64,000 nt of DNA, from assembly GCA_963971425.1 (NCBI GenBank), contig OZ020518.1, positions 31,006,770 through 31,070,769 of the forward strand. Reading direction: 5' to 3'. The notes under the pieces were generated by a model. The model did no database searches. It saw only the letters and a program-made list of their open reading frames with translations, and was not told the origin of the DNA. This DNA comes from Bryoerythrophyllum caledonicum (lineage: Eukaryota > Streptophyta > Bryopsida > Pottiales > Pottiaceae). Shown here piece after piece: positions 1 through 58,451 of the stretch. A program made the position numbers and the translations under genes. Position 1 is the stretch's first letter. Each line of letters opens with the position of its first letter.

Positions 1-770
1 CTAATGGATGCATTAAATGCGGATGAACTCTTCCAATGGAGTACTTCATCCATTTAGAAGTCGTTGGTTCTTTGTCGGATTCTCAGATGCCATATCATTC
101 CGAAATTTGCAATATAATGTCAAGAGCATTGTGTATAAGAAATATAGATTTTCATATGAACGAGGAAGTCCGATTCTACCGGTCCAACACTTCATCTTTT
201 AACTTTTGCACTCCTTTTTTTGATTCCAAGTGTGTTTAGAAAGTTCAACCCTGGTTCAAACCCCCAACTTCCAATTCTATCTGAAACACAAACATTGCCA
301 CCCCAAAATGGTGTAGAGTTTGGAAATATTTTAAGACATTTCTAAGGTAATCACATTGTTTGTAGAACATTATCAACATTATGATTTTGGAAAGTATCGT
401 AAAACACTGGCACCTTTCTCCAAGTTTCAAGTTCACTACATACATCTTTGCAAAAATAATTACTCCTTTAAAATGTAATGTTGGAGACATTAGAATGCAT
501 AAAATTTTCTCATTCCACACATCCACTTATACAAAAAATAATCAATCAAGTTTATTTAAAAATGGATAACATACAATGTACATTCTTTGTTTACATTGAC
601 ATGGCCGCAATGTAAAAATAAACATCCACTAGAAGATCTTAAAAAACGACTTCCGGAATTTACATAATAGTGTTCATGCACCAAGACATTCTCCACAATG
701 ACTATATAACAACGTGCCCATGTACAATTAATCTTCATCTAAGTTAGTATCATGTCTTGGACTTTGCCCA
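1..770. other. Intergenic, no gene seen
   Basis: AT-rich sequence with only short overlapping open frames on both strands. I see no conserved motif, repeat or RNA gene here. Confidence 0.6.
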
Positions 771-774
771 ACCT

Positions 775-2110
775 CACTTGAGATCGCTCAGGCTGTCCAA
801 TGGCGGACGGACTTGGCCATAATGCTCGATCGGACGGCTGCGCGGTCGGCACCATCAATCGTAGCCGTCCCATCGCTCTCATCCGTGGCCGTTCGATTGC
901 GGACGCACTCGACTGCGCCCGCCTAATCAGACGGTCTCGCTCCACCCAATGCCGATTGAACATCCTTGATCAATCGACTTGAGATCAATTGGTCGGCACT
1001 AGGTGGTCGACCGCCATGCCGTCTGCCCCTAGAGCTTTGTAGACGGCCACCACGCCACCAAGCCTCAAATTTCAGCAACTCCTTCCCCTCTCCTCCACTT
1101 CTCTCTGCTCTTTGGCAACACAAAAGTGGTTTACAACTTTTCTTTTTTGGGTAGTTTTACATTGCATGTGTAGTCAAAATCAGAAGAAAGAGTCACATGC
1201 ATTATTAGTCAGAGGAGTGTTTGGAAGATTTTATGCAAATATAGTTGGATATTTCATTCCAAATATCTTATGCGCTTGGAAGTATATGAAGAATAGAATT
1301 TGTGAACAGTGGTTCTACGTAAAATAGACTACATAAGAAATGTTGATTCATTTTCTTCCTTTACTAACGACAAACATATTGGAATGGCCGACCGCTTGGT
1401 TCTCCGCACGGCGGTCAGCCACCCGCCATCCGCTTGGCGGTCGGTTTTTTCCATTTGGGCGTCCCCTCTGCCGTTCGCCTCGCCAACCGCACATCGATTG
1501 GTCATTGGGCGTTTGCTCGTCGGACTCAAAGCCGACCGCCGTGCAGACGGCCTTTAGGCATCCGCTGCGCGCTTTATATTGTTGGAAGCGAATTTTCAAA
1601 ACGCTTTCAATGGTATATTATACATTCAAAAACTCCCAGAAATGAAGGAATTATGGCCAGAAAACCCGTGGGGACGGCTAGGCAGTCAGCCGCAAGGACG
1701 GGTGAGGGCCGACCGCTGTGCGGACGGCCCTTGGGCGTCCGCCGCGCGCTTTATACCGTTGAAAGCGCATTTTTAAGACGCTTTGAATGGTATATTACAA
1801 GTTCAAAAACTCCCAAAAATGAGGGAGTTATGGCCAAAAATCCTTGCGGACGATTAGGTAGTCAACCGCGCGGACGGGAGAGGGCCGTCCGCCGTGGCGG
1901 ACCGCGGATGGCGGACGGCGGTCGCCCCAAGCGGACGAAATGGCCGTCCGTAGCGTGGTCGCCTCCAGCGGTGGACGCCCGGCGCCGTCTGCCGAGCAGT
2001 CAGCTGGGGTAATGGACGGCTATTTACCCCGGGTAAACTAACCAAAGTCGTTATGTCACCGGACGTCGTCATGGGGCCGAGGACGTCCTCTGTCCAAACG
2101 ATCGGACGTC
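775..2110. repeat. GC-rich intergenic block rich in CGGACGG/CCGTCCG words
   Basis: Two GC-rich patches (about 775-1060 and 1385-2110) are full of short CGGACGG, GACCGC and GGCCGTCC words on both strands. They stand out sharply from the AT-rich flanks. A 192-codon open frame over 1434-2012 comes from the GC bias and repeat structure and resembles no protein I know. The block contains the 177-bp tandem repeat listed separately. Confidence 0.6.
1531..1910. repeat. Tandem repeat, about 177 bp x 2.2
   Basis: Units begin at 1531, 1708 and 1884 with GCCGACCGCYGTG or a close variant. Each full unit then has a CGCGCGCTTTATA segment, an AATGGTATATTA segment, a run reading CAAAAACTCCCA and a conserved TTATGGCCA. 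The third unit is only a start. Two units differ by scattered substitutions, so the duplication is not very recent. The 177-bp length is in the range of plant satellite monomers, but only two copies are present here. Confidence 0.75.
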
Positions 2111-2254
2111 ATGGACGTCGAGCGTCCTGACAACTCTGTGGTAAAGTAACAATTTTTCAACCTTCAGGAGGGTGTCAAAGTTGACAGCAATACATGACAC
2201 TATCCCTGAAATTGCCAAAACGCCAATTTGAATGTCACCGTACAATATAGTAGG

Positions 2255-2505
2255 GGGACAAAAAGTTTGGCGTTTTTGCATTCTAACAGAAGAAAAAATC
2301 AAGCCTACAATCTTTTAAAATGCACCAAAGGCACAAAAATCTTCCCCTACCTACCAAATTAGAAAATTGGAATTTTTAATAAGCTAATTACATGTTTGCA
2401 AAGTTTTGTGACCTAATAATTTATCAAAGTGGTTTTATAGCTGTAAACTCCAAACTATTACCCATTTCAAAAAAGTTTGACGTTTTTGCATTCAAACACT
2501 AACAT
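2255..2505. repeat. Short direct repeat, about 210 bp apart
   Basis: The words AAAAAGTTTGGCGTTTTTGC (from about 2259) and AAAAAGTTTGACGTTTTTGC (from about 2470) are nearly identical direct repeats just upstream of the retrotransposon coding region. They are too short to be called LTRs. I found no long terminal repeat pair around the element. Confidence 0.5.
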
Positions 2506-2567
2506 TTATTGCTTTCATTATAAACCAAAACAAGATGCAATAAAGATCCTCTAAAATATATTGTTAT

Positions 2568-3864
2568 TTGATGAAGTATAACTACGTAATTGAGGATAAA
2601 CCTGCTAGTCGTATCTTCACCCCGGGCCCTTACCATTCACATCCCCCTCTTTTCTTTATAAATCAAATTTTTACAATGTGCCTTTGTTTGTTTGACAACA
2701 ACAGATATGAAGAATTCGAGGAGGTTTACCTTGCAAAAGTCTTAGCATGGAGAGATTTCTACGCATCAAACTACATGGATGTTTTTGGTGGAGTACCAAG
2801 GGTGCCATCACTGGGCAACGGGAAGACGGAGGACGACACAAGCGGTGCTGAAAAAGTGAGCCAACTTGTGGACATGGTGGCTACCCCACCTCCATAAAAT
2901 CCTATCAATAGATTCTTTAAACAACTTCGTCGAGACTACCAGGGTCAACAATCGGACAAGATGAAGGCGTTGAGGTCTTTCGCGCGGGAAAGAGATAAAG
3001 TTTTGCGGGAAGCTCATGCGAGGTTGCAGAGACTGATCTTTGCTACTCATGGGGTCACGGAGCAACATGCAATACAATGTTGGTACAATATCCTTGAGAA
3101 GAAGTTAAAAACTATATTATGGAATGACGCATTGCAATTGGGTGAGCCACCAACCTTGTGATTTGTGTTTGAGACTTCATAGCAAATTGAGATCAATTTG
3201 TTGGAGAAGAAAGCAGCCATGGGATTTTTCAAACGTGAAGAGAAGGTTTTTGGAAAGGCAAAGGTTGCCAAGGCTGCCATTCCCTCCAATGCTACTGACG
3301 TTGAGGCCTTATCCTTTAGTTGTAGCAAGCCACGATATTTGAAGAAGGATTGCAAGGAAAGCAAGTCCCCTATCCCTCAAACTGGTGGATTTTACTCTAC
3401 TTGCGGCGCCAAGGGGCAATCCTGAGTTGAAGCCTTTTGGAGGAAAAGGAGGCAAGGCAAGGAGGATGGACAAACAGTCGAAGGCTTCTAGAGAGGAGAA
3501 GAAGAGTTGGAAGGCCAAGTTCGCAGAAGTGAAATCCAAGATGGAGGCAATGAGTGCAAAGACCGCTTCAGTGAGTGATAAGCCTCAAGTCACTCCTAGT
3601 TTTCATGCTGGAGGCAAGTTTAGATCCAATGATGACGAATTTGAGGATTACATGCTGAGTGGCACAGTACCTGCTATCACAGATGGCTTGCCGGAGGCTT
3701 ATGCCTTTATACAGAGTTCAACATCCGTGATCAAGGAGACGCCACGTGGAGCAAGCTCAACTCTGGATCGTCAACATGGGAAGGAAAATAGGCAAGCTCG
3801 ATTGCCGGAGTCTTTCACATCGGAAGAAATGGTGCCAACATCTTCCATGGAATCTCCAATTTAA
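2568..3864 (+). pseudogene. Gag-like region with degenerate zinc knuckle
   Basis: Frame 3 stays open from 2568 to 3425 apart from a few stops, then the coding potential moves to frame 1 (3385-3864). The part at 2961-3160 (FARERDKVLREAHARLQRL) has the charged, helical look of a plant retrotransposon Gag. Near 3315-3350 the peptide SCSKPRYLKKDC resembles a CCHC zinc knuckle that has lost ligands. The downstream part is rich in Lys, Ser and Glu, as Gag tails often are. The true start and any fusion to pol cannot be fixed because of the decay. Function, from the family: packaging of element RNA. Confidence 0.6.
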
Positions 3865-4013
3865 TGGGGGGCGCTTCCAACACGCCCCACGGTTGGAGTT
3901 TAAGAGCCAACAAATACGGTGGTAGTTGAAGCGGCAAACGTGGTTGGCAGGCTTTATTATTTTCTGCTTAACTGACGTCACAAAAGGGCTTCATTTTAGC
4001 AGTAGTCTTCAAG

Positions 4014-4650
4014 ATGGCGGCCACAATGTATGAATTAGATAACTCCATGGGCATCAATGTGTTGAAGATGGAGGTGATTGAGTCAGAGGCGGATGCGAGT
4101 CATGAGAACAACATGGAGGGGTTGTGTTTAGCAGCCATGCGTGTCAAGACCATGACCGCTAGACTTGCAATCGAGAGGTCATCCCTTACATTTGATGTGG
4201 TGGTGGTTGACAACTTCCACGGGATTTTCCAACTTATTGGACCTTATAGGAGGGTTTTGTACCTTGACGTATGCTTTTGGATTCAAGAGCTCAATCGATG
4301 ATGTTGAGAACATCTACCATTAAGGTGTTGGGCTTAACTTAGAACATTTTTAAAAAGTGTCCATGGACAACTAGTACGTCTATGGGAGGTATGGAGCACG
4401 CTACGAGCATTGCAATATTGGAGTTAATGATGCAATCCAACAAAGATGATGTCAAGGATGCGAGCTTCATGAAGGTGAAAGCTATAGTCACGAAGGCCAA
4501 GTCATATGATGTCTTGGTAGGCTCGGCAGTGCTATACTCCATAGGATCTACCTTGGATTTATCGGAGGAAACAACAAGCTATAGAGCACGGTAGTAAGCG
4601 GGAGAGATGGCCAGAAGGCCCAACTACCAGCTCAATTTATTTGAGTTCTG
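4014..4650 (+). pseudogene. Retropepsin-like aspartic protease region
   Basis: Two open pieces (4014-4301 and 4382-4594) lie between Gag and the methyltransferase. The second contains VKAIVTKAKSYDVLVGSAVL, which matches the C-terminal half of Ty3/gypsy retropepsins, where a hydrophobic Y-D-V-L-[VI]-G strand follows the active-site region. The active-site D-[ST]-G is not visible. After a frameshift the sequence goes on as GQKAQLPAQFI from about 4609, in exactly the frame of the methyltransferase that follows. This suggests that protease and methyltransferase belonged to one polyprotein. Confidence 0.6.
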
Positions 4651-4689
4651 ATTGATAACCTTGCGGATGTATTCACCTTCTCAGGAGGT

Positions 4690-5880
4690 ATGGACATGAA
4701 ACCACCATGGATTCAGGAGGATTTTGATAAGTCTTCTATGACTACTTCTACATTTGATGAGGCTGATGCTCACGTGGGTGACATGAGTGTTGGAGATACG
4801 AAGCCGTATCAACCCGGCATTGAAGCAACATTGAGATCCACGACTCAGCTTTAGAAAGATGCTGAGCAAATTATCAAATATGCTTGGCAGCATTTGATGC
4901 TCCTACAAGTGCAAGAGGAGTCTGGAGAGGACCAAGATTTATGACCATCTCTTGCCACTTCTAGCATTCATTGAAAGGCACCAAAGGATGATATTGTCTT
5001 GTTGAAATTATTAGAGAATATTGGAAGTGGCTTGGCGGTAGTGCCGCAAGTGGGCATCATGGTCAAAAACTACATCTATGAAGGTGTTGATGAAGCAACT
5101 AGGTAAGCCGCCAAGCGACATTCACAGCAATTGAGGACACAATTCCCGGACTTGTTGGCTACTAGTGTCATCAAGACTTCCTTCTCCATCCTTGTTGGTG
5201 ATATTGCCTTGCATTCAGCAAAGGACATTCACCATGTTCTCCATATAGACCTTATCATTGCGGGTTGGCCTTGTCAAGGTATGTCTATGGCCGGACATTA
5301 GAACGAGTTGAAAGATACATGTTCCTTGTATTTTTATGATATGATCCACATGTTGCGTTTGCTTCATACATCTCAAAAGCGACAACCAAGTTATATTGTG
5401 AAGAATGTACTAGTGGTGAGTAGCTGCAAGTTGAGGACCTTAGAGGGCATGCACCACATACACTAAACTTTGGGTTTGCTAGTGTTCTTGGATGCGGATG
5501 CGGTGGGATCACGTGCACATTGCCCGCGGATGTGGTGGAAGTATTTAGCACCTCAAGAGTTGCTACAGTCCACCGTGGGTCGTATCAAACAGCCAGATGT
5601 CTATATGAGTGATATTTTGGATCTTCAAAGGGCACCTCGGTGCGTTTACGATGACAACCAAGCACCTTTGGCGGTGGTTAATCGCAAGGGAGAACGGTGT
5701 AAGGCATTGCCTACGTTGATTAGTTTTGCTAGGTCGTTTGCCTTTAAGGATAATGACCCTGGCTTTGTTTGGGCTTTAATGTCTCAAGAGATAGTAGAGC
5801 CCAATGCGGATGAGCAGGAGAGAGCCATGGGCTTTTCCACGGGCACTACCAATGCGCTCGGGACTTCAGAGCAACAATAG
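4690..5880 (+). pseudogene. Cytosine-5 DNA methyltransferase domain within the gypsy polyprotein (DNMT3/DRM-like), broken by stops
   Basis: One frame (frame 1) carries the whole domain without a frameshift. Motif I, the SAM-binding loop, reads LLENIGSGLAV (about 5008-5040), followed by GVDEA (5083-5097). Motif IV reads IIAGWPCQGMSMAG, with the catalytic Cys codon at 5272-5274. Motif VI (ENV) appears as IVKNV, Glu changed to Lys at 5401. Motif VIII appears as GSRAHCPRMWW (5506-5538). A motif IX-like ERAMGF lies near 5818-5835. The motif spacing and the GSRAH..RMWW and ERAMGF forms resemble DNMT3/DRM-type enzymes more than DNMT1 or CMT. In-frame stops are at 4852, 4942, 4972, 5104, 5299, 5464 and 5878. 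Known role of the family: transfer of methyl from SAM to C5 of cytosine. This copy cannot make a full enzyme. Confidence 0.85.
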
Positions 5881-6142
5881 CGATTTTTACATGAGCAAGC
5901 AATCGCTGGTGGTTGCCGAATATAAGCGATTAGCTTCTAGTTTGACTGGTTAGGCGGGCTTTTTTGAGTTGCAGATAGCTAGAAAATCATTTGTCTTTGT
6001 CAGTTTAACAGACAAAGTGGCTGGGAGCGAGAGGGCCTTGGTACTTCATCCATGAAACATGTGAGGTACTGCAAATCTTTTTGTGGAGGCCAAGGCTAAG
6101 GATCCTCAACATGGAGTAGAGGATTGAAACCAGAGTAGGGGA
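5881..6142 (+). other. Linker between methyltransferase and reverse transcriptase, degenerate
   Basis: The methyltransferase frame continues after the stop at 5878 as RFLHEQAIAGG, reminiscent of the last motif of DNMT3-like enzymes. It then breaks up. No further domain is recognisable before the RT-side open frame at 6143. Confidence 0.4.
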
Positions 6143-7284
6143 TTGGTCCACCAGAGGAAAAATTTGGAGGAAGCTCTGGAGAAGATGTTTATGGAAGAAT
6201 ACACAGCTTACGAAATGGAGGAGATTGGCAAACTAAGCCAATTGGAAGGACTTGGAAGCATGATGGGGATAAGGGAAGAAGAGCTTTGTCTATCCGGCAT
6301 TCAACAGCAACCAAGGAAGGAAAATCCTTCTCCAACGAAATCGAAGGAGGTGGTGACCAAGGATACTTGGAAACCAATCGTAGGCCTAGCGGATGGAATA
6401 GTTGATGTAGAAAAACATCAGTTCCTCAAGGAGTACATGGATTGTTTTGGCTTTAGTCTAAAAGATCTTGAAGTGTTGAAGGGATAAGAAGTACGTATCA
6501 ACTTGACAAACAAAGCACCAATCTATCGCAAGCCGTACAAATTTAGTGATGTAGAGTGGAACATGGTTAGTCCTCGAACGAAGGAGTTGGTCGCTACAGG
6601 GCTAGTGGATTTGGCTCCACCGGATTGTGAGTATGCATCGCCAACGGTTATGCCATCCAAGAAAGATGTCTTTGATAATTGGACCGAGAAAAGGATGTGC
6701 GGGGGCTATAGGAGGATTATTAAATTCACCAAGTCGGATCGTAATGCCATGCCAACGCCGGAGGAGAATTTTGAGGCTACTGGTCAAGCCAAAGTATTCA
6801 GTACAGTAGACTTGCGCTCTGAATACCACCAATTTGGACTGAGAGAAGAAGACAAGGAGAAGACCACGTTCTGGGGCATTGGCAAGATGGAAAGGACTGG
6901 TTGTTTCAATGAAAGTTTTTACTTTTTGGATTGAAGAATGTGCCTGCCAAATTCTAGAGGGTTATGGATGGAATATTCTTAGGCTTGGACTTTGTCAGAT
7001 GCTACATTGATATCATCGTTGTCTTTAGCAATGATCGAAGACAACATAGGCTACACTTGATGGAAGTGTTTGCTAGACTACGGCTCCGCCGTTTGAAGTT
7101 GCACCTTGGTAAGTGCAAATTCTACTTCAACCGCATCGAATACTTAGGCCATATGATATATCTAAGTAGATTGGATGTGGTAGTTAGCAAAATTGAAGTA
7201 GTGATGTCTATTACTAGACCAAAAGATGTTGGTAGACTATGTGCATTTTTGGGATTATCTAACTACTATAGAAAGTTTGTGTAG
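6143..7284 (+). pseudogene. Ty3/gypsy reverse transcriptase, inactivated
   Basis: Open pieces at 6143-6487, 6503-6934 and 6964-7284 give the RT fingers and palm in order: PIYRKPYKFS (entry motif), ASPTVMPSKKD, RMCGGYRRI, FSTVDLRSEYHQ (motif A Asp present), then LGLDFVRCYIDIIVVFS and LHLGKCKFYFNRIEYLGH. The catalytic box that should be Y-x-D-D reads YIDI (about 7003-7014), so the second metal-binding Asp is missing. A frameshift lies near 6890-6960, in the segment that should read like FGLKNAPA. Known role: copies element RNA to DNA. This copy would be inactive. Confidence 0.9.
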
Positions 7285-7830
7285 ACTCTCAATGCTATTG
7301 CAAAGCCATTGACCATGTTGACAAGGAATGATCAACCTTGGATCCGGGGAGATGAGCAAGAGGCGGCCTTTCATGAGTTGAAGGTCCGCTTGGCATCAAC
7401 ACCTGTACTTTAAGGCCAATAGCAAGAAGGACTTATGAGCTACGTACGGATTGGAGCACATTGGAAATTGGCGCGGTGCTGACGCAAATGGATGATGACC
7501 GGAAGGAGTTTGTGATCGCGTACGCCAGTCAGTCTACCAACAATGCCCAGGCTCAATATAGCTTGTATGAAGGGGAATGCTTGGCCGCAATATGGGCAAT
7601 TGCTCATTTTTGGTATTATCTTTATGGTAACAAATTTCTATTGGTTATAGATCATCAACCTTTAAAGTGGTTGACGGAATCTGACAAACTAATAGAAAAA
7701 CTAGCGTGATGGGCCTTGATGTTGATGGTGTACAACTTCAAGGTGGTGTACAAAGCGCGATTGGTTAATATGGATGCCTACGGACTTAGCCGCAATCCAA
7801 TTCCAAACCAAGTGGATTCTACAGGCGCTA
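7285..7830 (+). pseudogene. Ty3/gypsy RNase H domain
   Basis: After the RT stop at 7284 the connection segment is recognisable (AIAKPLTMLTRNDQPW). The RNase H domain follows at 7461-7709 (LEIGAVLTQ, IAYASQSTNNAQAQYS, ECLAAIWAI, VIDHQPLKWL), and after a stop at 7707 comes MVYNFKVVYKARLVNMDAYG. The motif order is that of gypsy RNase H, which removes the RNA template strand. The Asp expected before the first motif (TDxS) is disturbed by a frameshift near 7410-7460. Confidence 0.85.
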
Positions 7831-7989
7831 GGTGGCACGGTGAAGATGAGGCCAATCCATTACCAAGGTGGCATTATTTGGCCTTTCTAAGTGTATTGAT
7901 GACGCGTGGAGATGACACTAAAAGAGCTACTGTGACTACAATAGATGAAGATGTCGGTGAAGAATTTGGGTCGCCAAAGACATTTTTGA

Positions 7990-8900
7990 GGGCATGAACG
8001 TGATGCGGTTTCTAAATAATGGAGAAGTGGTGTTTACGTGGTCTGTTAAGGAGAGAGATCGGGTCTTACAACAAGCCAAACGATTTGTGTGAGAGAGGGC
8101 TTGTCTTTTGAGAGTGTGGCCGGCTGGCACCCGGAAGGTTGTGCCGACTGCATTGGATAGACTGAAGCTTATCAACGACACGCATGAAGACCTTTGGCAC
8201 TTTGAAGTGCGGAAGACTTACAACTTGCTCCAACATCACTATTGGTAACGAGAAATGGGGTCACAAGTTCAAGCTTTGGTGGCCCGGTGCATGGTTTATG
8301 ATTGTGTGCGAGCATCTTTTAACGCTTTGATGCCACAATTGCAACCATTACCAATTATTGGCTTGGGTTACATGTGGACTTTGAAGGTCCACTGCCAATG
8401 ACACCTCAACACAAAGGTGTGTATTAGTGATAATTGAATACTTCTCGAAGTGGATAGAGTTGGTAGTCTTGCTTGACAGATTCAGTGAAAGAGCCGTTTA
8501 TTCTTTCCTTGATTGTCTTCTGAGTCGCTTTGGAGCTCCAACCAAAGTTCTCAGAGTCCAAGGAAGTGAGTTTTTGGGTGAGTTTAAAACGTTGTGTGAG
8601 CAAGCGATGATAGATCACTACACTACTTCAAGAGACCACCCCGAAGCAGCTGGATTGGCAAAGCGCATGGTGCAAACCGTCAAGAGGGGACTTTGGAAGT
8701 ATAGTTTGAAGAAGGGACATCATCAGGATTGGGACTTGCAATTACCGTGGAGAGCCATGGGCTACCGGTTTAGCAAGGAAGCATCCTTGGCGTCCGTTTC
8801 TCCCTACTTTTTGTTGTTTGGAAGGCATCTAGTGTTACCGAAGGCCATTCAAGAAAATGTTAACACCATGTTCGCTAACATGGACAATACAAACACCTAG
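7990..8900 (+). pseudogene. Ty3/gypsy integrase with lost catalytic residues
   Basis: The zinc-binding part is visible at about 8180-8320 (HEDLWHFEVRKTYNLLQHHY, VARCMVYDCVRASFN), giving the H..H..C..C order. The core follows: VDFEGPLPMTP with the first Asp at 8377, then the open frame 8427-8900 with YFSKWIELVVL, VLRVQGSEFLGEF, RDHPEAAGLAKRMVQTVKR and DWDLQLPWRAMGYRFSKEA. Family members have D-Q-G where this copy has V-Q-G, and E-R where it has K-R, so the second and third residues of the D,D,E triad appear lost. Stops and a frameshift separate the zinc part from the core. Confidence 0.85.
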
Positions 8901-9077
8901 GCTCAAGTGTATGAGCAACGGACGAATTTATTCAAGCGGTTAATGCCTATGGCATTGGAGAACCTCTCCATTGCTCAACATGGGGATACCTTGCACTATG
9001 CTATGATAAGGGGAAGAGGTTATCAATTGCAAGTGCGGTATTTTACTCTTGGAGACTCTGTGTATTTACAGTAAGCA

Positions 9078-9420
9078 ATGCCCATCACCTTAGATGTGAT
9101 GGCGGGACGGGTGATCTTGGGAGTTTGTGAACTGAAAAACTCAGGAATGTTATTGTTCGAGGGTTGTAATGGTAAGGTATGGAAGAATCACATGCGCAAT
9201 TGCGCGCCTTGCCATTTGCCACACATTGATGGCACGATAAACCTAGTCTTTCTCACATCTCTGCCAGAATACGATGTCCGTTGTGTAGTAGTGGCAAACG
9301 GGCAACCACAACGGTCATTTGTGACTTGTGCACTATGAGTGGCATCTAGAATGTCTAACTCCATTTCTTTTAGAGGTACCAGTGGGTCAATGGTCGTGTC
9401 CAAAGTGTTTGGGACATTGA
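9078..9420 (+). pseudogene. Element C-terminal tail with a PHD zinc finger in three frames
   Basis: The tail begins with GRVILGVCELKNSGMLLFEG and MRNCAPCHLPHIDGT in frame 3. A PHD finger follows in frame 2 (RCPLCSSGKRATTTVICDLC, first Cys codon at 9275). After a one-base deletion near 9337 it continues in frame 1 (WHLECLTPF, EVPVGQWSCPKC, from 9340 to the stop at 9418). With the lost base allowed for, the ligands fall as C-x2-C-x11-C-x2-C-x4-H-x2-C-x14-C-x2-C. This is the C4HC3 PHD pattern, with the usual Trp two residues before the last Cys pair. PHD fingers commonly read histone H3 tails. In this position it could have served for target choice, as chromodomains do in other gypsy elements. 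Confidence 0.85.
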
Positions 9421-10130
9421 GAGTCTACATAGACAAGGTCTAACAATTTAAAAAAATGTTGGAGGCGATTAAAGATGACGCTCCCATTGCACCCGACCTA
9501 TCTTTTGTCTATACAGTTTGTTAATGTCCTTTCTGTAGATCGACTTGATTTCTCTAGACTTGAGAGGTTTTCATGATTGGTCGCCCCTCTAGTTTACGTG
9601 AATAATGTAGTTCGCCGGTGTGAAAGGGGCTTCAGCACGGGTAAAGAGGGCAAGTAAAGGGGTCCTTGTAGACCAATTACTAAATGTTTTGGTCTAGATA
9701 TTTATTTCTATTTTCCTAACCTAAGTTGCTAAGTGGTGGATAGTTTCTTTTATAAACTATTATTTTTGATGTTTAAGGAGGCAATAGTGATGGTTTAGTC
9801 ATTGTTGCTCCGGGTTTGTTTTCGATTTTGTGCTCTCATCTATTGGCACAATGTTATCTTTGCACAATGTGTTGGTGCACGACAAAAAAAATTATCTAAA
9901 AAAATATACTTCATTTTAAATCAATTCTGAATATGGAAAGAAATGGAAAGGAAACTTTGTTGCAAAAAGGTCGCATCTACAATAAGTTGATGCTTCCGTT
10001 GTCGTGAAGGAAGTCAGCTGATATTGTAAAAATATAGAAAAGAGAGAAAAGTGAATGGTTAGGGCCCAAGGTGAAGACATGACTAGCGGATTCATCCTCA
10101 TTTATGCAGTCATATTTCACCTAACAACAT
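9421..10130. other. 3' flank of the retrotransposon, no gene
   Basis: This begins with a segment that probably belongs to the element 3' UTR. It includes a purine-rich run around 9640-9658 that may be the polypurine tract. I could not identify a 3' LTR by comparison with the sequence upstream of 2568. Confidence 0.4.
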
Positions 10131-10134
10131 CTTT

Positions 10135-10322
10135 ATCTTAGAGGATCTTTCTGCATCTTGTCACTACCTCAAGGCTTAGGAGCGTCCACCAGCTGGTTTT
10201 CATGCTGATTCCAGCAGTCTCCTGACCACGCGTGCATCAGCCGCTCTGACAAGCCAAGGAATCGAACCCAAACCGACGAGGTGCAACAAAATGCTCAGCC
10301 AACCAAACTGAGCCGCGGTCGA
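10135..10322 (-). mobile_element. tRNA-derived SINE relic
   Basis: Read on the minus strand, 10317-10292 gives GCGGCTCAGTTTGGTTGGC, a good match to a tRNA A box. 10268-10258 gives GGTTCGATTCC, a near-perfect B box. The box spacing, about 30 bases, fits an internal RNA polymerase III promoter. The sequence does not fold as an intact tRNA and continues past the B box into unrelated body sequence, as plant SINEs do. The 3' limit is uncertain. Confidence 0.6.
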
Positions 10323-10329
10323 TGACAGT

Positions 10330-12060
10330 GCGTGGGCTCTAATGATATATTAGCCATTATCTAACTCTTCTAAGATCAAAAAACCTAAACAGAGCGCTAT
10401 GGTATTTTAGTTTGTAGTAGAAGTAAGAAATATTAATGTTTGGAGTCAAGTTAAAGGAAAAAAATATGGGCAGCTACTTATAAATATTATAGATAAGATA
10501 TAAGAGAGAACCTAAGATTATATGGGAAGATATGGGCAATGATTGGAGGTAAATTGACTTAGGTGACCAAACTTTTGTCAAAATAAGAGGCTTGAAGGCG
10601 TGGGCTGATGTTGATCCTTGACTTTCTTGCCCTTCTCCCCTGCTCGAACTCTTCTCCCCTGCTCGAACTCTTCTCCCATGCTCGAACTCTTCTCCCCTGC
10701 TCGAACTCTTCTCCTCAAGACTACAAATAGCCCTCGGGTTTCTGGTAGTAGCATCGCAAGTTTTTAAAATTTGATTGTTAATTTTTGGAGTATTGTTCCT
10801 CTTGTTGTTAGCGTTCCAGTGATGTATCACACGCTCCAATCGAAGTCGTAGTAAAGCCATGGTACGGATTTGAATAAAGAGGGGTTTAGAAATTGAGGCA
10901 GTAATGTATAAAGACTTTGAAGGAGTGGTGTTCGACGATCATTGTGAATTTGATAGTGAGATTTTGAGGGTAGTATTTCAATTTCCTTAAAAAGCTTTTG
11001 TCGAAATCTTCGATGCATTAGGACTAAAATCTAAAAGCTATGAGGTAAATTGTAACCGGGATTTTGAGAGGGATTCAAGGGCAGAACTTGGTATACAGAA
11101 ACTACGCTTTGGGAGATTATTGATAGAGACTTTAATATTAATTTTTTTGAGGAAGTGTTCTTTGTTATATAAATGACTTATATACAAATTTTGAGATCTT
11201 TGTCCGTAATAGAATTGGAGTGATGAAGAGTTGAAGTAAAGAGGGCCTGAAATTAGAGGCAGAGGAGTTTAAGGCCATGGATCTTATTGAGAATTGATCC
11301 AATAGTAATGAAAACTTGTATATAGCTTTTTAACAAGGTTGTAAAGGTTGTGTCAAAATCCTAGAATCATTGGACTTGTAGATAAAAAATTATGTAAAAA
11401 TTAGTGATGGGATTTTTAGGGGCAGTGTTTGAAGATGGGAACTTCTAGATTTGAGAGTGTTATGGAGATAGACTAGAAGCAAAAGAAAGACATAGTAGCT
11501 ATTTTTTATGTTTGTTGAAGCCATACATACAAGATAAGTCTTGCACTTAACTACCTAAATGCAAAAAAAGACCGTGTGTTTCCTAAAGCAAAGTTCTCTC
11601 AACACGACACCGTGCTCATTATTTGATCCGCCTGTGCCGGCTCTTTACACGTAACCTAGTAGAGATATATTGTCAAACACGGAATGTGCAAGTTTAGCAT
11701 TTAATAGCAAACACATGACCAAAATCCATAATGCGGTGGAGAATTCAAATGGTCCTTCGGGCATCTGCATCCATCTTGCCAACCAACATGCCAAGGAGCA
11801 CATGGCGTGTTTGATTCCCAGGAGCTCTCCACCATGCATAAATTTCATCCCTCCAAATATACCGAGACGTCAAAATATGGCATTTTCATGTCAACTTGAT
11901 GTGAGCTTTGGAGGCATGCCATAATTTTCGGGTCAATGCAAATTGGTGGGGAAAAAACAGGATTAGATGAGCTGGGGTGAATATTTCTTGCGGTGAATGA
12001 GGGGAATATCAAAATTTTAGGCGGGTTGCTTTGGTGCTCAAGCGGAGCAGTCATAGTTCA
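10330..12060. other. Intergenic, no gene recognised apart from the small repeat noted
   Basis: AT-rich sequence. Short open frames on either strand (for example around 10474-10860 and 11645-11924) have no recognisable domain. The 3' part, 11650-12060, may belong to the LINE relic that follows, but I see no RT motif. Confidence 0.4.
10632..10715. repeat. 19-bp tandem repeat, about 4.4 copies
   Basis: The unit CTTCTCCCCTGCTCGAACT repeats at 10632, 10651, 10670 and 10689 with one substitution (CCAT for CCCT) in the third unit, then a partial unit. Confidence 0.95.
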
Positions 12061-12063
12061 AAC

Positions 12064-12615
12064 TTGGTAGCCCAGAGGTCATTATGTCCATGTGCCAAAT
12101 CGTATGGGGACTCAACACCGTGAGGAGCGGCGCAGATGCTCATAGTGGGCTAAACCCAACAAAAGACATGCCATCTTTGCAACCACGTTGCCCACGAAGT
12201 TCATAGACATTAGCAGGATTTGGCTCCTATTGAAGGGGGTTACACTGTGGCGCTCTGGATTGCTAGGAATGATTGGATGTTGAATCAACACCGATGGACT
12301 GAACACAAGGTTTAGAATGTTATTTGGCAAGGCTTGGCGGATTACAAGAGGGTGGCATCGGGCCGTGCTATGACGGTCAACTCCAATCAAAGTAGGGTAA
12401 AATCCACCACCCATTTTGACGCCAATCGGGGTTGCTTCAAGGATGTGTGCGTTAGACATGGTGAACGTGTGACATGGATTAGAGAGTTCCATTAGTAGCT
12501 CAGTCTCTTTGTCGCATGGCTGGTCAAGGTGCGCTCCTTGTGTTGTTTTTGTGTTATTTTCTTGCAATTGAATTTCAATTTAATTTGTGCCAAAACAAAA
12601 AAAAAACAAAAAACA
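12064..12615 (+). mobile_element. 3' end of a LINE (non-LTR) element with A-rich tail
   Basis: On the plus strand, 12245-12365 reads ALWIARNDWMLNQHRWTEHK, a stop, then VIWQGLADYKRVA. This W-[IS]-x-R-N-x-x-[FL]-N....VIWQGL.DY pattern is typical of the C-terminal region after the RT of plant LINEs. About 230 bases later there is an A-rich run (12594-12612), as expected of a LINE 3' tail. The RT itself is absent, consistent with 5' truncation or decay. The 151-codon open frame on the opposite strand (12112-12567) is a shadow. Confidence 0.5.
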
Positions 12616-27730: not shown

Positions 27731-28755
27731 TAGTGTGTAATGGTTAAGGCCGTAAAGCGTCGGGGTAAAGCGCAGCGAAAGGCCGGTGGGGCCCGATGGA
27801 GGCCTCCACGTCGACGCTGCGGGGCCCACCGACGGAGCCCATGAAAAGGCAACAGGAACTCATCCACGATATCAGTCACGAAAATTGCCACACTGAGCCT
27901 TCAAGGCAGTGACTCGTCGTCCTAAACAACTCGCATGTTCATCACTGGCGACGCGCTCAGGCCTCTCGTCACTTCTCTTTATTGGCCTCGCACCAACTTC
28001 CCATCCCAGGTGACTGTCCATATCATTCGTGGCCAGGCTCTTCAATTGCGCCTGCTTCCTGTTCGTATTTCTTTTTCTGAAGCGCATCAATGAGGAGGTT
28101 AGGGGTGGTTATGAGCCGGTGTCATGAGTGGTGGTGACAGACGTCCAGTAACTCTGCTAGTACCACTTGGTTTCCACTGCTGGTGGACGTGGTCCATAAG
28201 AGGATACGTCAGTACGCGGACCCATTGTACCATGGATGCCGATGTCGATGGTAGAGTCTTGTCGATGTGGTCTTTTTGTAGCCGCTCTGCCTGCTGTTGC
28301 CTGCTGCAGGTTCGAAGCGTGCGGCCCGCTGGAGCACTGATCTCGCTTTCCTGATGAATGAGCTATTTGTCGCACTGTGTGTGCTCTGGTGTGTCGACGA
28401 CGTGGTTCGGTGCCAATCGGTACTTGTCGTTGCTGGATCAGATTGATGTCCGTACTGCAGTGTTGAAGGTAGATAACGTCATTTGCTTAATAGCGATCGA
28501 AGTGTCACCAGCTGCTGCTTGCAAACTGTCTAGCTTCTGCCTTCGATTTTTCTGTGTTTTTTACTCGGGTGGTTCAATCAATTGCTGGTTTTGGCGCTTG
28601 TGAGGTAGCTAGAATTGGTTTGGTGGCTTGATAAGCAGAGAGGCGGTCGTGGGAGGGGAGTATTCTAGAGCTGGAGGTTTTGGATACCGAAGGTGGGCAG
28701 TTGGTTGACGAGGGTTGTGTGAAGGCTTCGGAGCGGTTTGTGTAGACTGCTTGAC
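27731..28755 (+). promoter_or_regulatory. PAL upstream region (promoter and 5' UTR)
   Basis: About 1 kb of more GC-balanced DNA directly upstream of PAL, without coding potential or recognisable transposon. It includes a GC-rich imperfect hairpin (GGTGGGGCCC at 27785, GGGGCCCACC at 27821). Near 28702 the plus strand reads GTTGGTTGACGAGGGTTG; its reverse complement is rich in CAACC words, as in the AC elements bound by MYB factors in PAL promoters. The transcription start and TATA box are not determined. Confidence 0.4.
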
Positions 28756-31170
28756 ATGTTGATGAACAAGAGGGCGAAGATGGGAGCGATGGTGGACGGT
28801 GAGGCAGTGGGCGCCATTTTGAGCCACTTGACGCACATTGGCCATGACGCGAACGCCCCGGCCATGGCGTTCCAGCTGGAGCCGTCGCAGCCGCACACGA
28901 ACGGGCTCATCGGGGCCACGTTTCCGGAGAAGTCGTTGGTGGAGCTCTGCGACGTAGAGGCGCAGCGCGACGATCCTCTGAATTGGGGCAAGGTCGCGGC
29001 GGGGCTGGCGGGCAGCCATGTGGAGGAGGTCAAGGCGATGGCGGCTACCTTCTTCGACTGCCGCGAAGTCGTCCTCGAGGGCGCCGGGCTGAGCGTCGCG
29101 CAGGTTGCCGCCATTGTGCGCAGGCCAGAGGTGAAGGTGGTCCTCGATGCGGCCACCGCCAAGGCGCGCGTGGACGAAAGCTCCAATTGGGTGCTTTCCT
29201 GCTCCATGAAGGGCACTGATACTTACGGCGTCACCACAGGTACGCCAAATTCCCTTTCACATACGAAATAGAGTCAATGTGTAATGCGCGACGGTCTCAT
29301 CACATTGTGAATCAAATTTGGAGAGAATTTTGTTCTGATCGGCGATCGTTTTTGTTTTGGGTGTACAATAGGGTTTGGCGCGACGTCGTACCGCCGGACG
29401 ACGCAAGGGGCGGAGTTGCAGCGCGAGCTGATTCGGTTTCTGAATGCCGGCATTGTGGGGAAAGGCGATGGCAACACGCTCCCGTCGTCCACCACGCGCG
29501 CCGCGATGCTGGTGCGTACAAATACCCTGATGCAGGGGTACTCCGGCATCAGGTGGGAGATTCTGGACGCGATGAAGAAGCTGCTGAACGAGAACGTGAC
29601 GCCGAAGCTGCCCCTTCGCGGGACGATCACGGCGTCCGGGGATTTGGTTCCGCTGTCGTACATCGCGGGGTGCTTGACAGGGAGACCGAATTCGCGGGCG
29701 TGCACGGCGGACGGAAGGGAGGTGGGCGCCGAGGAGGCGCTGCGGATTGCGGGGGTGGGGAAGCCGTTTCAGTTGGAGCCCAAGGAGGGGCTGGCGCTCG
29801 TGAACGGGACGGCGGTGGGGTCGGGGCTGGCGGCGACGGTGTGCTTCGACGCGAACGTGCTGGTGGTGATGGCGGAGGTGCTGAGCGCGGTGTTCTGTGA
29901 GGTGATGCAGGGGTGGCCTGAGTTCACGGACCCGCTGACACACCGGCTGAAGCACCACCCGGGGCAGATGGAGGCCGCGGCGATGATGGAGTGGGTTCTG
30001 GACGGGAGCTCCTACATGAAGGCCGCCGCTAAGCTGCACGCCACGGACCCGCTCATGAAGCCGAAGCAGGACCGGTACGCGCTGCGGACCTCCCCGCAGT
30101 GGCTGGGCCCGCACGTCGAGACCATCCGCACCGCCACGCACTCCATCCAACGCGAAATCAACTCCGTGAACGACAACCCCCTCATTGACGTCGCGCGCGA
30201 TATAGCGCTCCACGGCGGCAACTTCCAGGGCACGCCCATCGGCGTGTCCATGGATCACCTGCGCCTCTCGGTCGCCGCCCTCGGCAAGCTCATGTTTGCG
30301 CAGTTTAGCGAGCTCGTCAACGACTTCTATAACAACGGCCTGCCGTCCAACCTCTCCGGGGGCCCCAACCCCAGCCTCGACTATGGCATGAAGGGCGCGG
30401 AGATCGCCATGGCCTCGTACCTGTCCGAGCTCAACTTCCTCGCCAACCCCGTCACCACCCACGTCCAGAGCGCCGAGCAGCACAACCAGGACGTCAACTC
30501 CTTGGGCCTCATCTCCGCGCGCAAGTCCGCGGAGGCCGTGGAGATTCTCAAGCTCATGACGTCCACCTACCTCGTCGCGCTCTGCCAAGCCATCGACCTG
30601 CGCCACCTGGAGGAGACCATGCAGGCCACCGTGAAGACCGTGGTCGCCAACGCCGCCAAGAAGACGCTCGTCGTGGGCGTCAACGGGGCGCTCCAGCTCG
30701 CGCGCTTCTGCGAGAAGGAGCTCCTGCAGGTCGTCGACCACCAGCCCATCTTCACCTACATCGACGACGCGGCCAGCATGGCGTACCCTCTCATGCAAAA
30801 ACTGCGACAGGTCCTGGTCGAGTTCGCGCTCAAGTACTCCCGCGACGACGGCATGCATATCTTCCACAAGATCGTCGCGTTCGAAGACGAGGTCAGGTCT
30901 CAGCTGGAGGTGAAGGTCCCCGCCGCGCGGGCCAACTTCGATGGCGGAGTGTTCGCCGTCGCGAACCGCGTGGTCGACTGCCGCTCGTATCCGCTGTACG
31001 AGTTCGTGAGGACAGAGCTTGTGACGTCCCTGCTGACGGGCGAGAGGTCGCAGTCGCCCGGCACCGACTTCGAGACGGTCTACGACGCCATGTGCGACGG
31101 CCGCCACGTCGCGCCGTTGCTCAAGGTGCTGGAGGGATGGCGGTGCGCGCCGGGCCCGTTCGCTGTGTAG
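28756..31170 (+). CDS. PAL: Phenylalanine ammonia-lyase (two exons)
   Basis: PAL removes ammonia from L-phenylalanine to give trans-cinnamate, the entry step of phenylpropanoid metabolism; the enzyme is a cytosolic tetramer. Exon 1 is 28756-29239 and exon 2 is 29372-31170, joined across a 132-bp GT-AG intron (phase 1), giving 760 residues, the usual length. The Ala-Ser-Gly triad that forms the MIO cofactor is at residues 249-251 (29632-29640). The catalytic Tyr is in TYGVTTG at the exon junction. The selectivity residue is Phe184 (IRFLNAG), which indicates a PAL rather than a Phe/Tyr lyase, where His stands. [16 protein letters not shown] and the C-terminal lid region are intact. The ATG at 28756 is the first in frame after a stop at 28720; in-frame ATGs at 28762 and 28780 are alternatives. 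Codon use is strongly GC-rich, unlike FAB1 and the flanks. Confidence 0.97.
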
Positions 31171-42300: not shown

Positions 42301-42824
42301 ACGGCAGGGCCATCGGATGACGCAGTCAGAGGCCGGGTCGTGGATAACGACTCGGAATAGGCGATATCAATATTGCCTGTGAGAATCCTGGTAGCAGAGC
42401 CTGAGGCATGATTAAAACTGTGGCCTGGCTCAGATGGACTCAAAGTCTGACTCGGTGGAGAATCTGCAGGCAGAATCCCACGATCGGCATAGTCCTGCTC
42501 AACACGAAGCTTGAAGCAAAAGTTGCAAACTCGGACTCGCTCGTTCTCGTCATGACCACTGCGAGGACTGCCATGACTCAGAGAGGCAGGAATAGTGTTG
42601 AGCGTACACCTCCCACAAAAGACGCGGCCGCATATCCGACAGTGATGACGCCTGTTGAAGATTGTAAACTGAGAGTCGCATTCGTAGCACATGCGACAGC
42701 TCCGATCGGGCATCCAAAAATCTCGAGACATGACTGCGGCCTCATCCTCCCTGTTGCCAAAGAGAGGAATCCAGGCACTCACCCGTTCCACAATATCGCT
42801 CAATGCATTGGCTGCTTCTTCCAT
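33331..42824 (-). CDS. FAB1: 1-phosphatidylinositol-3-phosphate 5-kinase, FAB1/PIKfyve type (18 coding exons)
   Basis: Makes PtdIns(3,5)P2 from PtdIns3P on endosomes and vacuole membranes. Coding exons read by eye, all GT-AG: 42178-42824, 41691-41876, 41181-41409, 40866-41018, 40479-40639, 40128-40281, 39801-39980, 39175-39582, 38700-38945, 38165-38380, 37402-37733, 36969-37095, 36575-36745, 35782-36448, 35026-35621, 34305-34865, 33963-34223, 33331-33627. They join in frame to 1863 residues, close to the roughly 1750-1800 of flowering-plant FAB1A/B. N-terminal FYVE finger: WMPD 37-40, NRRHHCRICG 57-66, Cys pairs 43/46, 62/65, 70/73 and 100/103. CCT chaperonin-like domain, about 410-670 (TSKGGGMDPGGYVKVKC, AAYHLALETSFLADEG). 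Cys-rich conserved region in exon 11 (IWMWHRCLRCP). C-terminal lipid kinase, about 1560-1840, with YDLKGSVRSR (Asp1709) and LGIIDFIRQYTWDKH (Asp1791). No lesion is seen. The low-complexity acidic linkers in exons 2-3 and 14-15 fit the family. Confidence 0.97.
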
Positions 42825-42831
42825 CAGCCAT
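42742..42831 (-). other. Upstream ORF overlapping the FAB1 start
   Basis: An ATG at 42831 lies 7 bases upstream of the FAB1 ATG in another frame. It opens a 29-codon ORF that overlaps the FAB1 N-terminal coding sequence and ends at 42742. If transcription starts upstream of it, scanning ribosomes would meet it first. A 5' UTR intron or a different start could remove it. There is no in-frame upstream ATG for FAB1 before the stop at 42863-42861. Confidence 0.5.
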
Positions 42832-57406: not shown

Positions 57407-58451
57407 TGTCGTAGTCCAGTAGTTCGTATTTCTTAAAATTAACCAAAATTAACCTTAAGAAAGCCCCACCTAACCGGATTAGTTCCAGGGATTTCTATCG
57501 TGCGTTAAACAATTTACTTCTAAACACAAAGCCATTTCAAAATACCTTAGCACATCCCGGAGAATGGCTTCCCGGGCATTTTCATGACCAACAAATAACA
57601 ACCGACTTGTTTAGTTTAAACTCCGTTGAGCGTCGGAGTAGATTTCCGGTGAGTTTTTATAGTGCCCGGAAAATCACTACCCTCCGTTCTCGCAGTCCAG
57701 AGGCCATCAAAAATCCACAAGCTAAACTACCCTTAGATTTAGACAAAAGGTTGTAGTTAGTTTCCCCGGGTTTCACAATCTCCCGGAAGGCTACCCCGGG
57801 GAGGTTTTCCCGGAAAAGCCTTCCCGGTGAATAGGTCACGCAAACCCGGGTTTCCCACCACAACCACACCTAATGAATCAAAGCAAAAATAATGTAAGAA
57901 TCATAACAAGCTAGTGTCATACAAACAAAATGAGCAAGACTTCCTTCTACGGGGATTATGGAGCCTCATCCGCCGCAAGGGTAGAAACCTTAGAATACTC
58001 TAAGATAAGGCTTAACCGGCACCTCTACCGGCGTACCAAGAGTGGGGATATCACCCCTCCTCTCCTACCAATCCAAGCACTTCCCACTTAAGGAACGCTA
58101 TCATTAATAGCGGTGGGTTTTCCCGGATCCCGGATCCGGTGAAAACAACCCTTCCCGGTCCCGGACCGGTCTCTAGGGTTTGAAGTAGGTCCCGGACCTC
58201 CCTTCACCTATTCTAACTTGGATGCCCTACACCCTCCAAAAGCCTCGGGCTCACAACACACACTAGCAAGTCACAACTTCACATCACCTAGGCAAAGACA
58301 CACTAGGAGGACTCACCTCTTTCTATCTTCACTTGCAACAAACTCTACAAAAGTCAAGACAACATATCAATGAAGACACAAAGAAAAGAAAGAAGACACA
58401 AGGATACATATGAGGACACCAAAGACATGAGCAAAGACATAAACATAAGCA

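What the first reader, a model, noticed from the sequence alone, without database searches (positions are those of the whole stretch)
4690..5880. A cytosine-5 DNA methyltransferase inside a Ty3/gypsy polyprotein of a plant
Between the protease and the reverse transcriptase there is a full C5-MTase domain, with motif I, Pro-Cys-Gln-Gly, a degenerate ENV, an RAH..R block and ERAMGF in order. It follows the protease tail in the same frame from about 4606. Plant retrotransposons normally carry no methyltransferase. From memory, retrotransposon capture of DNMTs was reported in 2018 for the dinoflagellate Symbiodinium and the charophyte Klebsormidium. I know of no land-plant case. An element that methylates DNA could hide itself by self-silencing, or change the host methylome.
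Basis: partly seen in the sequence, partly recalled or inferred. Interest (0 to 1): 0.92.

Follow-up and report, generated by a model that had tools for sequence, protein, structure and literature searches.

The report
DNA-methylating jumping gene of mosses
A moss genome holds hundreds of copies of a retrotransposon (a jumping gene that copies itself through RNA) that carries its own DNA-methyltransferase-like enzyme, and selection keeps that enzyme about as strictly as the element's copying machinery.

Summary
Window 2706-9884 is a dead copy of a Ty3/gypsy-type element; 4990-5917 is a DNMT3-class cytosine-5 methyltransferase domain (Pfam E 9.4e-8; relatives' profile best DNMT3A). The host is a moss (PAL 91% identical to Ceratodon purpureus). 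It is no chance insertion: the window is colinear with other genomic copies from gag to PHD finger; 37 of 79 scored copies have no stop in the protease-methyltransferase stretch; and of 8 copies picked by a site outside the domain, 6 carry it (2 lack most of it). The junction pattern occurs 304 times. Seven of seven checked copies show 4-bp target duplications. dN/dS of the methyltransferase is 0.04-0.05, like RT and integrase. New details: the enzyme ends ORF1 (gag-PR-DNMT3), followed by a conserved in-frame UAG in the CARYYA readthrough context, then RT-RNaseH-integrase-PHD finger; repeats are A1...B1A2B2 with a 12-nt self-complementary site after A1. Relatives occur in Marchantia, Calypogeia and unnamed metagenomes. 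Closest precedent: KnitGypsy-Dnmt3 of Klebsormidium (2018); I found no published land-plant case in the library searched. Activity and target are inferred. The host's own DNMT3 could not be compared: the genome search stayed unanswered.

The parts
2706..9884 (+). Decayed copy of the DNMT3-carrying Ty3/gypsy-type element, starting inside ORF1 and ending at the end of repeat B1
   Evidence: One colinear blastn alignment, 80.4% over 7260 columns, to genomic copy L034; 73.5-74.1% to L016, L018, L020, L022, L024, L026, L028, L030; L032 in two pieces
2928..3080 (+). Gag (Retrotrans_gag) region
   Evidence: Mapped from L016 ORF1 residues 229-279 (weak PF03732, E 0.0084, below cut-off) through the alignment
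3312..3359 (+). Place of the CCHC zinc knuckle
   Evidence: Mapped from L016 (PF00098 E 3.5e-5)
4262..4525 (+). Aspartic protease region, broken
   Evidence: Mapped from L016 ORF1 residues 682-769 (PF13650 E 0.0024, below cut-off)
4990..5917 (+). DNMT3-class cytosine-5 methyltransferase domain, broken by stops and a frameshift
   Evidence: PF00145 E 9.4e-8; relatives' profile 377 bits; mapped borders
5263..5289 (+). Motif IV with the catalytic Cys (GWPCQGMSM)
5392..5412 (+). Motif VI, YIVKNVL where intact copies have YIVENVP
5509..5529 (+). Motif VIII block SRAHCPR
5812..5835 (+). Conserved ERERAMGF block (EQERAMGF here)
6305..6307 (+). Codon position that is UAG (ORF1/ORF2 junction) in most copies; a sense codon (CAG) in this copy
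   Evidence: genome-wide 98 of 100 listed matches have UAG
6683..7158 (+). Reverse transcriptase, broken
   Evidence: PF00078 on two pieces, E 0.039 and 4.6e-8; mapped
7345..7733 (+). RNase H
   Evidence: PF17917 E 3.6e-26; mapped
8153..8314 (+). Integrase H2C2 zinc-binding region
   Evidence: Mapped from L016/L017 (PF17921, E 8.7e-16)
8369..8642 (+). Integrase core (rve, DDE)
   Evidence: PF00665 E 1.5e-6, under its cut-off (28.8 against 32.6 bits); mapped
9275..9408 (+). Place of the PHD finger at the integrase C-terminus, broken
   Evidence: Mapped from L016 (PF00628 E 2.7e-9)
9653..9884 (+). Repeat B1 (67% to B of L016); A not found in the window

Best explanation
This is a copy of a large moss retrotransposon family that has built a DNMT3-type DNA methyltransferase into its proteins. 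Shown by sequence: ORF1 encodes gag-zinc knuckle-protease-DNMT3; it ends at a conserved in-frame UAG in a CARYYA context; ORF2 follows in the same frame with RT-RNase H-DDE integrase-PHD finger; integrated copies run from TGTC to GACA between 4-bp target duplications, with a split repeat plan A1...B1A2B2; the methyltransferase is under purifying selection about as strong as that on RT and integrase. Inferred: most ribosomes stop at UAG, so DNMT3 is made in gag-like amounts and goes into the particle, and a minority read through to make the pol part. The 12 nt after A1 pair with a stretch inside A, so reverse transcription is probably self-primed. The enzyme then methylates the element's own new DNA or its landing site, while the PHD finger guides the integrase to a chromatin state, so that new copies arrive already marked. 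The window copy itself is an old remnant, probably silenced: its transitions are concentrated at CG and CHG sites, the footprint of methylation.
For: Domain order; colinear copies; 79 scored copies, 37 without a stop in the matched stretch; 304 junction matches against 0 for the reversed control, 98 of 100 listed with UAG although that base was free in the pattern; CARYYA readthrough motif described in PMC3542737 (one passage); repeats and ORFs; TG..CA ends and 4-bp duplications in 6 of 6 copies plus one more; A/B repeat differences 0-5 of about 603 sites in 6 copies; 12-nt complement in 6 of 6 copies and in a second-subfamily copy, which meets the self-primer rule used in PMC6317226 (10 bp or more, starting 0-5 bp after the 5' repeat; passage); omega MT 0.04-0.05, RT 0.04, INT 0.03, linker and tail 0.22-0.39; motifs intact in L016, L022, L034, one change in motif I of L032; profile against PDB: DNMT3A 3.7e-23, DRM2 2.4e-9, HaeIII 2.1e-9, HhaI 7e-8; transitions CG 126/463, CHG 88/354, CHH 245/2034, A/T 143/2867.
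Against: No activity, expression or methylation data. The Klebsormidium counterpart gave no methylation in yeast, which its authors call inconclusive (PMC5890265 section 10). Some distant relatives have altered catalytic motifs. 2 of 8 junction-picked copies lack most of the domain, so copies can spread without it. L034, L041 and the window copy have a sense codon in place of UAG. Only 6 of the first 10 copies show the complete A1...B1A2B2 plan in the stretch held. A 12-nt complementarity is short. Among close copies omega is noisy: 0.16-0.26 and once 0.81 for protease plus methyltransferase against L016.
Confidence: 0.8

Rival explanations
1. The domain is kept for a structural or regulatory role, like DNMT3L (recalled), and does not methylate: for instance it binds the element's nucleic acid or recruits the host's own DNMT3.
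For: Three distant relatives with integrase and PHD finger (P0209, P0211, P0212) have altered motifs IV and X; the Klebsormidium domain was inactive in yeast, inconclusive.
Against: In moss, most liverwort and L007-type chains PCQ, ENV, SxAHRxR, ERAMGF and LGQA are kept; motif I to IV spacing is 90 residues in 32 of the 34 chains in which a pattern search found both (exceptions P0200, P0204); omega is 0.04-0.05. P0201 lacks motif IV.
Confidence: 0.15
2. The enzyme methylates RNA (the element's genome or the priming structure) rather than DNA.
For: It shares an ORF with Gag, the RNA packager, and the element appears self-primed; RNA methylation was raised for Symbiodinium LINE elements (PMC5890265 section 11).
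Against: The profile is closest to DNMT3A, a DNA enzyme; DNMT2-type tRNA enzymes score far lower (best 2.7e-5).
Confidence: 0.08
3. It acts in trans on the host, changing the methylome to the element's advantage.
For: High copy number and gag-level dosage if the UAG model holds.
Against: Nothing measured here; a host-wide effect should be costly (inference). Klebsormidium's methylome is like that of land plants despite such elements (PMC5890265 section 9).
Confidence: 0.1
4. A host gene fragment fell by chance into one dead element.
For: This copy is dead and its RT lies in another frame.
Against: The window is colinear with ten genomic copies that have the domain at the same place (these were found by the domain); 6 of 8 copies picked by the junction carry it; 37 of 79 have it free of stops; related gag-PR-DNMT3 proteins in liverworts and metagenomes; purifying selection.
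Confidence: 0.01

Closest known systems
KnitGypsy-Dnmt3 of the charophyte alga Klebsormidium nitens (de Mendoza et al. 2018, PMC5890265; sections 9-11 read)
   Same: Gypsy-type domain set with a non-rearranged DNMT3 in the polyprotein, DIRS-like repeat plan, DNMT under purifying selection (their Ka/Ks < 0.2).
   Different: Land plants; DNMT3 ends ORF1 before a conserved UAG; PHD finger on the integrase (PHD does not occur in the main text of that paper); 4-bp target duplications and a self-complementary priming site shown here. Sequence kinship with it was not tested: no hit is named Klebsormidium, both of which scored capped candidate sets.
SymbioDIRS-Dnmt3 of Symbiodinium (same paper)
   Same: DNMT3 in a retrotransposon polyprotein, A...B-A-B repeats; those DNMTs methylated CG in yeast.
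   Different: Symbiodinium elements are DIRS-like with a tyrosine recombinase; this one has a DDE integrase and target duplications.
PAT-like DIRS elements (repeat plan; name recalled)
   Same: Split direct repeats A1...B1A2B2.
   Different: No tyrosine recombinase reported; DDE integrase, 4-bp duplications, TG..CA ends.
Chromoviruses and other plant Ty3/gypsy lineages (PMC6317226, passages)
   Same: gag-PR-RT-RH-INT order; self-priming is predicted there for the moss and club-moss Tcn1 clade.
   Different: PHD finger in place of a chromodomain, and a DNMT3 domain.
DNMT3 enzymes of animals and non-flowering plants
   Same: Motif order and best profile match to DNMT3A.
   Different: No ADD or PWWP reported in ORF1; embedded in a retroelement. 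Plant DNMT3 sequences were not compared.

Membership tests
Ty3/gypsy retrotransposon | gag, protease, RT, RNase H, then DDE integrase in that order | tested here: met
   L016 and L007 ORFs; gag and protease matches are weak, below cut-off
Ty3/gypsy retrotransposon | TG..CA termini and short target-site duplication | tested here: met
   6 of 6 copies, plus the C9 copy
Ty3/gypsy retrotransposon | Two equal terminal repeats (classical LTRs) | tested here: not met
   A1 at 5', B1A2B2 at 3' in 6 of 10 copies, no classical pair in the others; so it is gypsy-type by protein, not a canonical LTR element
DNMT3 cytosine methyltransferase | Motifs I, IV, VI, VIII, X in unpermuted order with PCQ/PCN and ENV | tested here: met
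   Genomic copies and most relatives; degenerate in the window copy
DNMT3 cytosine methyltransferase | Closer to DNMT3 than to DRM, DNMT1 or bacterial enzymes | tested here: met
   Profile against PDB: DNMT3A 3.7e-23, DNMT3B 5e-20, DRM2 2.4e-9, HaeIII 2.1e-9, HhaI 7e-8, no DNMT1 chain at E 0.001 or better; no host DNMT3 could be compared
DNMT3 cytosine methyltransferase | Methylates DNA de novo | not testable with these tools
   No assay
KnitGypsy-Dnmt3 kind | Gypsy domain set plus DNMT3 plus DIRS-like repeats plus purifying selection | tested here: met
   against the description read
KnitGypsy-Dnmt3 kind | Common descent with the Klebsormidium elements | not tested
   No sequence named Klebsormidium among the hits
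DIRS/PAT elements | Tyrosine recombinase and no target duplication | tested here: not met
   rve integrase and no tyrosine recombinase among the Pfam hits, 4-bp duplications
Chromovirus | Chromodomain at the integrase C-terminus | tested here: not met
   PHD finger instead; no chromodomain among the Pfam hits
Type-I (CARYYA) stop-codon readthrough | UAG followed by CARYYA | tested here: met
   UAG CAA CCA in 9 of 10 copies, UAG CAA UCA in L007; motif text in PMC3542737
Type-I (CARYYA) stop-codon readthrough | Measured readthrough product | not testable with these tools
   No expression data

The most novel reading that the evidence does not exclude
Bryophytes host an ancient, still mobile class of retroelements that writes and reads chromatin: a DNMT3 made at Gag dosage by stop-codon control, a PHD finger on the DDE integrase, self-primed reverse transcription and split (BA)n repeats. 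Each new copy would be methylated and placed by its own proteins, making it a mobile unit of epigenetic marking with a replication plan between LTR and DIRS elements.
Probability: 0.45. Interest if true: 0.92.

Novelty: new variant of a known kind. Interest (0 to 1): 0.78.

Why it matters
Why a retrotransposon would carry the enzyme that hosts use to silence retrotransposons was left open by the 2018 report (PMC5890265 section 11). Finding such elements in a moss in hundreds of copies, and related polyproteins in Marchantia polymorpha, a genetic model, moves the question from algae and dinoflagellates to plants where genes can be removed and methylomes read. The strict conservation says the enzyme matters to the element. 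It also warns that DNMT3 counts in bryophyte gene sets may include transposon proteins: Marchantia proteins listed as hypothetical are such polyproteins.

Tried and rejected
Chance or nested gene fragment: rejected. Classical equal LTRs: none found in window 1-12500 at 30 bp or more nor in the ten genomic copies, where the split plan is found in six. Viral contigs: 6 weak loci, best-segment identity 28-40%, were not followed. The prokaryote genome collection gave one contig, L007, filed under a cyanobacterial MAG but carrying the gag-PR-DNMT3 / RT-RH-INT-PHD element; used as a relative of unknown host. A search for host DNMT3 and an RT-first count of copies without the domain could not be done (genome search did not complete). 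Structure prediction was off, so there is no fold comparison. The tree used 49 of the 93 protein hits, four moss copies, L007, the window and one outgroup fragment on a long branch; I use only its starred clades. P0208 and P0210 were dropped from it because their domain hits were scattered.

Literature: read sections 9, 10, 11 of PMC5890265 and section 5 of PMC12344493, plus passages of both; only passages of PMC6453930, PMC9033089, PMC6317226, PMC5784723 and PMC3542737; all other papers were seen as search listings only; no supplements. PAT and DNMT3L remarks are recalled.

Full report
What the window holds. The raw window has a frame between 4606 and 5880 that carries C5-methyltransferase motifs in canonical order. 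With stops as X it matches Pfam DNA_methylase (PF00145, E 9.4e-8), PDB chains of DNMT3A (E 9e-4), and 60 proteins in a 5.8-billion-sequence search, the weakest at E 2.5e-25. Against a profile of its relatives it scores 377 bits; the best of 500 shuffles scores 4.3 bits, and the only window tiles listed (4 of 582) overlap the place. The domain proper maps to 4990-5917. This copy is dead: 8 stops in frame 1 of 4606-5904, a frameshifting deletion in motif X, motif I and ENV altered.

Host. The PAL reading frame at 29311-31170 is 91% identical to Ceratodon purpureus, 84% to Physcomitrium patens and 73-75% to the Sphagnum proteins listed. The host is a moss; its genome as held has 437 Mb in 894 contigs and the window lies on contig C6.

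The element. Searching that genome with the related protein P0002 gave 79 scored places (2431 first-look candidates) at E 4.6e-255 or better, 69-72% identical; 37 of the 79 have no stop in the matched stretch. I fetched ten of them with flanks, 20 kb each, choosing mainly places without stops. Six of ten show the same plan: A1 (about 371 bp), a leader of about 2.8-3.1 kb, ORF1 (stop to stop 1371 or 1364 codons in five of these six, 1305 in L022) ending in UAG, then in the same frame ORF2 (1041 codons where complete: L016, L018, L022, and L030), then B1 (about 232 bp), A2, B2. L030 shows only B1 and B2; L026, L032 and L034 show no pair in the stretch held. In L016, ORF1 carries a zinc knuckle, weak gag and protease matches and DNA_methylase at 6.6e-14; ORF2 carries RT, RNase H, integrase H2C2 and rve, and a PHD finger at 2.7e-9. 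L007, a distant relative, has the same set, PHD at 4.3e-10. The window 2706-9884 is colinear with these copies, 80.4% with L034 and about 74% with eight others; L032 matches in two pieces. These ten were found through the domain, so that they have it is no news; the news is the shared order on both sides of it. Of 8 copies picked by the ORF1/ORF2 junction instead, 6 carry the domain, one of them with a frameshift.

Mobility. In the six copies with all repeats the ends are TGTC...GACA and the flanks carry 4-bp duplications: CCTC, TAGT, AAAT, CCTT, GGCA, GGGG (read off). A second-subfamily copy on C9 has AGTT, and its 3' end is a (BA)3B array. A and B copies within an element differ at 0-5 of about 603 sites. 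These are recent insertions made by a DDE integrase. The first 12 nt after A1 are complementary to 12 nt inside A at about position 220 in 6 of 6 copies and in the C9 copy, although the alignable parts of the repeats are only 74-76% identical between the two subfamilies. I read this as self-priming; it meets the rule by which PMC6317226 predicts self-primers and which picks out the moss and club-moss Tcn1 clade there (passages). B1 and A2 join through the palindrome GACAGCTGTC. How such repeats are regenerated each round is unexplained.

The UAG. The junction reads CAA UAG CAA CCA in 9 of 10 copies; L034 has a sense codon, and L007 has AAG UAG CAA UCA. Of 20 further copies 18 have UAG, one a sense codon, one no match. 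A genome-wide pattern with that base left free and one mismatch allowed gave 304 matches (reversed control 0); of the 100 listed, all without mismatch, 98 have UAG and 2 CAG. These sets overlap. UAG-CARYYA is the readthrough motif named in PMC3542737. That readthrough happens here is inferred. If it does, DNMT3 is made at Gag level and only RT and integrase at pol level.

Selection. Nei-Gojobori dN/dS between subfamilies (L016 against L034 and L032): methyltransferase 0.05 and 0.04, PR 0.06 and 0.08, gag 0.07 and 0.06, linker 0.22 and 0.23, ORF1 tail 0.39 and 0.39; L016 against L034: RT 0.04, RNase H 0.01, integrase core 0.03, PHD 0.08. Synonymous distances are large (0.6-2.4), so the ratios are approximate; the contrast between domains and linkers is not. 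Among close copies numbers are small: protease plus methyltransferase of L016 against five others gives 0.16-0.26 and once 0.81 (L028; 3 synonymous, 8 other changes).

Decay of the window copy. At sites where L034 and L016 agree, transitions are 126/463 at CG, 88/354 at CHG, 245/2034 at CHH and 143/2867 at A/T; transversions are 2.6-5.4% throughout. This fits long methylation at CG and CHG, that is, silencing. It does not say which enzyme made the marks.

Relatives. Proteins of the gag-PR-DNMT3 kind occur in Marchantia polymorpha (P0198, P0200, P0201, P0203, P0204; 44-48% to L007's domain) and with names of Calypogeia fissa (P0032, P0041), and in many unnamed metagenome records. The tree of 56 rows, a part of the hits plus one DNMT3A fragment as outgroup, puts the window with L032/L034 (100/96), the moss-genome rows in one clade of 13 with metagenome rows (98/99), and the Marchantia and Calypogeia rows in a clade of 10 (100/99). 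In P0209, P0211 and P0212 catalytic motifs are altered, in P0202, P0205 and P0207 motif IV reads ECQ, and in P0211 the domain sits between RNase H and integrase.

Results against. Two of the eight junction-picked copies (L056, L057) keep only the last 56 profile positions of the domain; they are 98.6% identical to each other and their first 958 bp match nothing else held. So a derivative without most of the domain, and without recognisable ORF1 before it in the stretch held, has spread too. No expression, methylation or enzyme data exist here, and the host's own DNMT3 was not compared.

Mechanism. Shown: architecture, mobility, selection. Inferred: enzymatic activity (likely, since the motifs are kept), gag-level dosage, methylation of own DNA or landing site, PHD-guided integration. 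The PHD finger's nearest solved sequences include PHF12, KMT2C, KDM5A/B, PHF21A, UHRF1 and AIRE (KMT2C is my name for the listed MLL3 homolog); several of these read the unmodified H3 tail (recalled), which suggests but does not show a similar role.

Known or new. KnitGypsy-Dnmt3 of Klebsormidium is the same kind in domain set and repeat plan (PMC5890265 section 9). A 2025 survey mentions retrotransposon DNMT3s in streptophytes and dinoflagellates, citing that paper, and speaks of LTR Copia and DIRS (PMC12344493 section 5; its species tables were not seen). Six searches aimed at the question and three on side questions (48, 51, 76) showed no land-plant case in their listings. I therefore call it a new variant of a known kind.

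Noticed in passing
P0198, P0200, P0201, P0203, P0204: Marchantia polymorpha proteins in public sets, named hypothetical or CCHC-type, are gag-PR-DNMT3 retroelement polyproteins; P0201 runs on into the start of RT and lacks motif IV.
   Followed up: partly
P0209, P0211, P0212: Distant elements whose DNMT3-like domain has altered catalytic motifs; in P0211 it lies between RNase H and integrase, with a PHD finger behind.
   Followed up: partly
L056, L057: Derivative copies that keep only the end of the methyltransferase and the pol side; upstream is sequence that matches nothing else held, the same in both.
   Followed up: partly
L064, L065, L066 (host contig C9): A copy whose 3' end is B-A-B-A-B-A-B, so the BA unit count varies between copies.
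   Followed up: partly
L007: A contig in a public cyanobacterial MAG (CADCWO010000201.1) is a eukaryotic-type retroelement of this kind, so that bin looks contaminated.
   Followed up: partly
28723-31170: Phenylalanine ammonia-lyase gene on the + strand (frames 28723-29271 and 29311-31170, exon borders not determined); used to name the host group.
   Followed up: yes
34278-42860: FYVE, Cpn60/TCP1 (weak) and PIP5K pieces in order on the - strand: probably a FAB1/PIKfyve-type lipid kinase gene in exons.
   Followed up: partly
58307-58847: Tandem array coding for a repeated peptide (KDTKTQAKTQRGNEDTKKEC); open frames on both strands.
   Followed up: no
59168-60655: Open frame of 495 codons on the - strand with no Pfam match at E 0.01.
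   Followed up: partly
1368-2012: G+C-rich-looking stretch open for 214 codons with a 136-bp direct repeat, 85% identical at 177-bp spacing.
   Followed up: no
10613-10726: Tandem array with a 19-bp unit.
   Followed up: no
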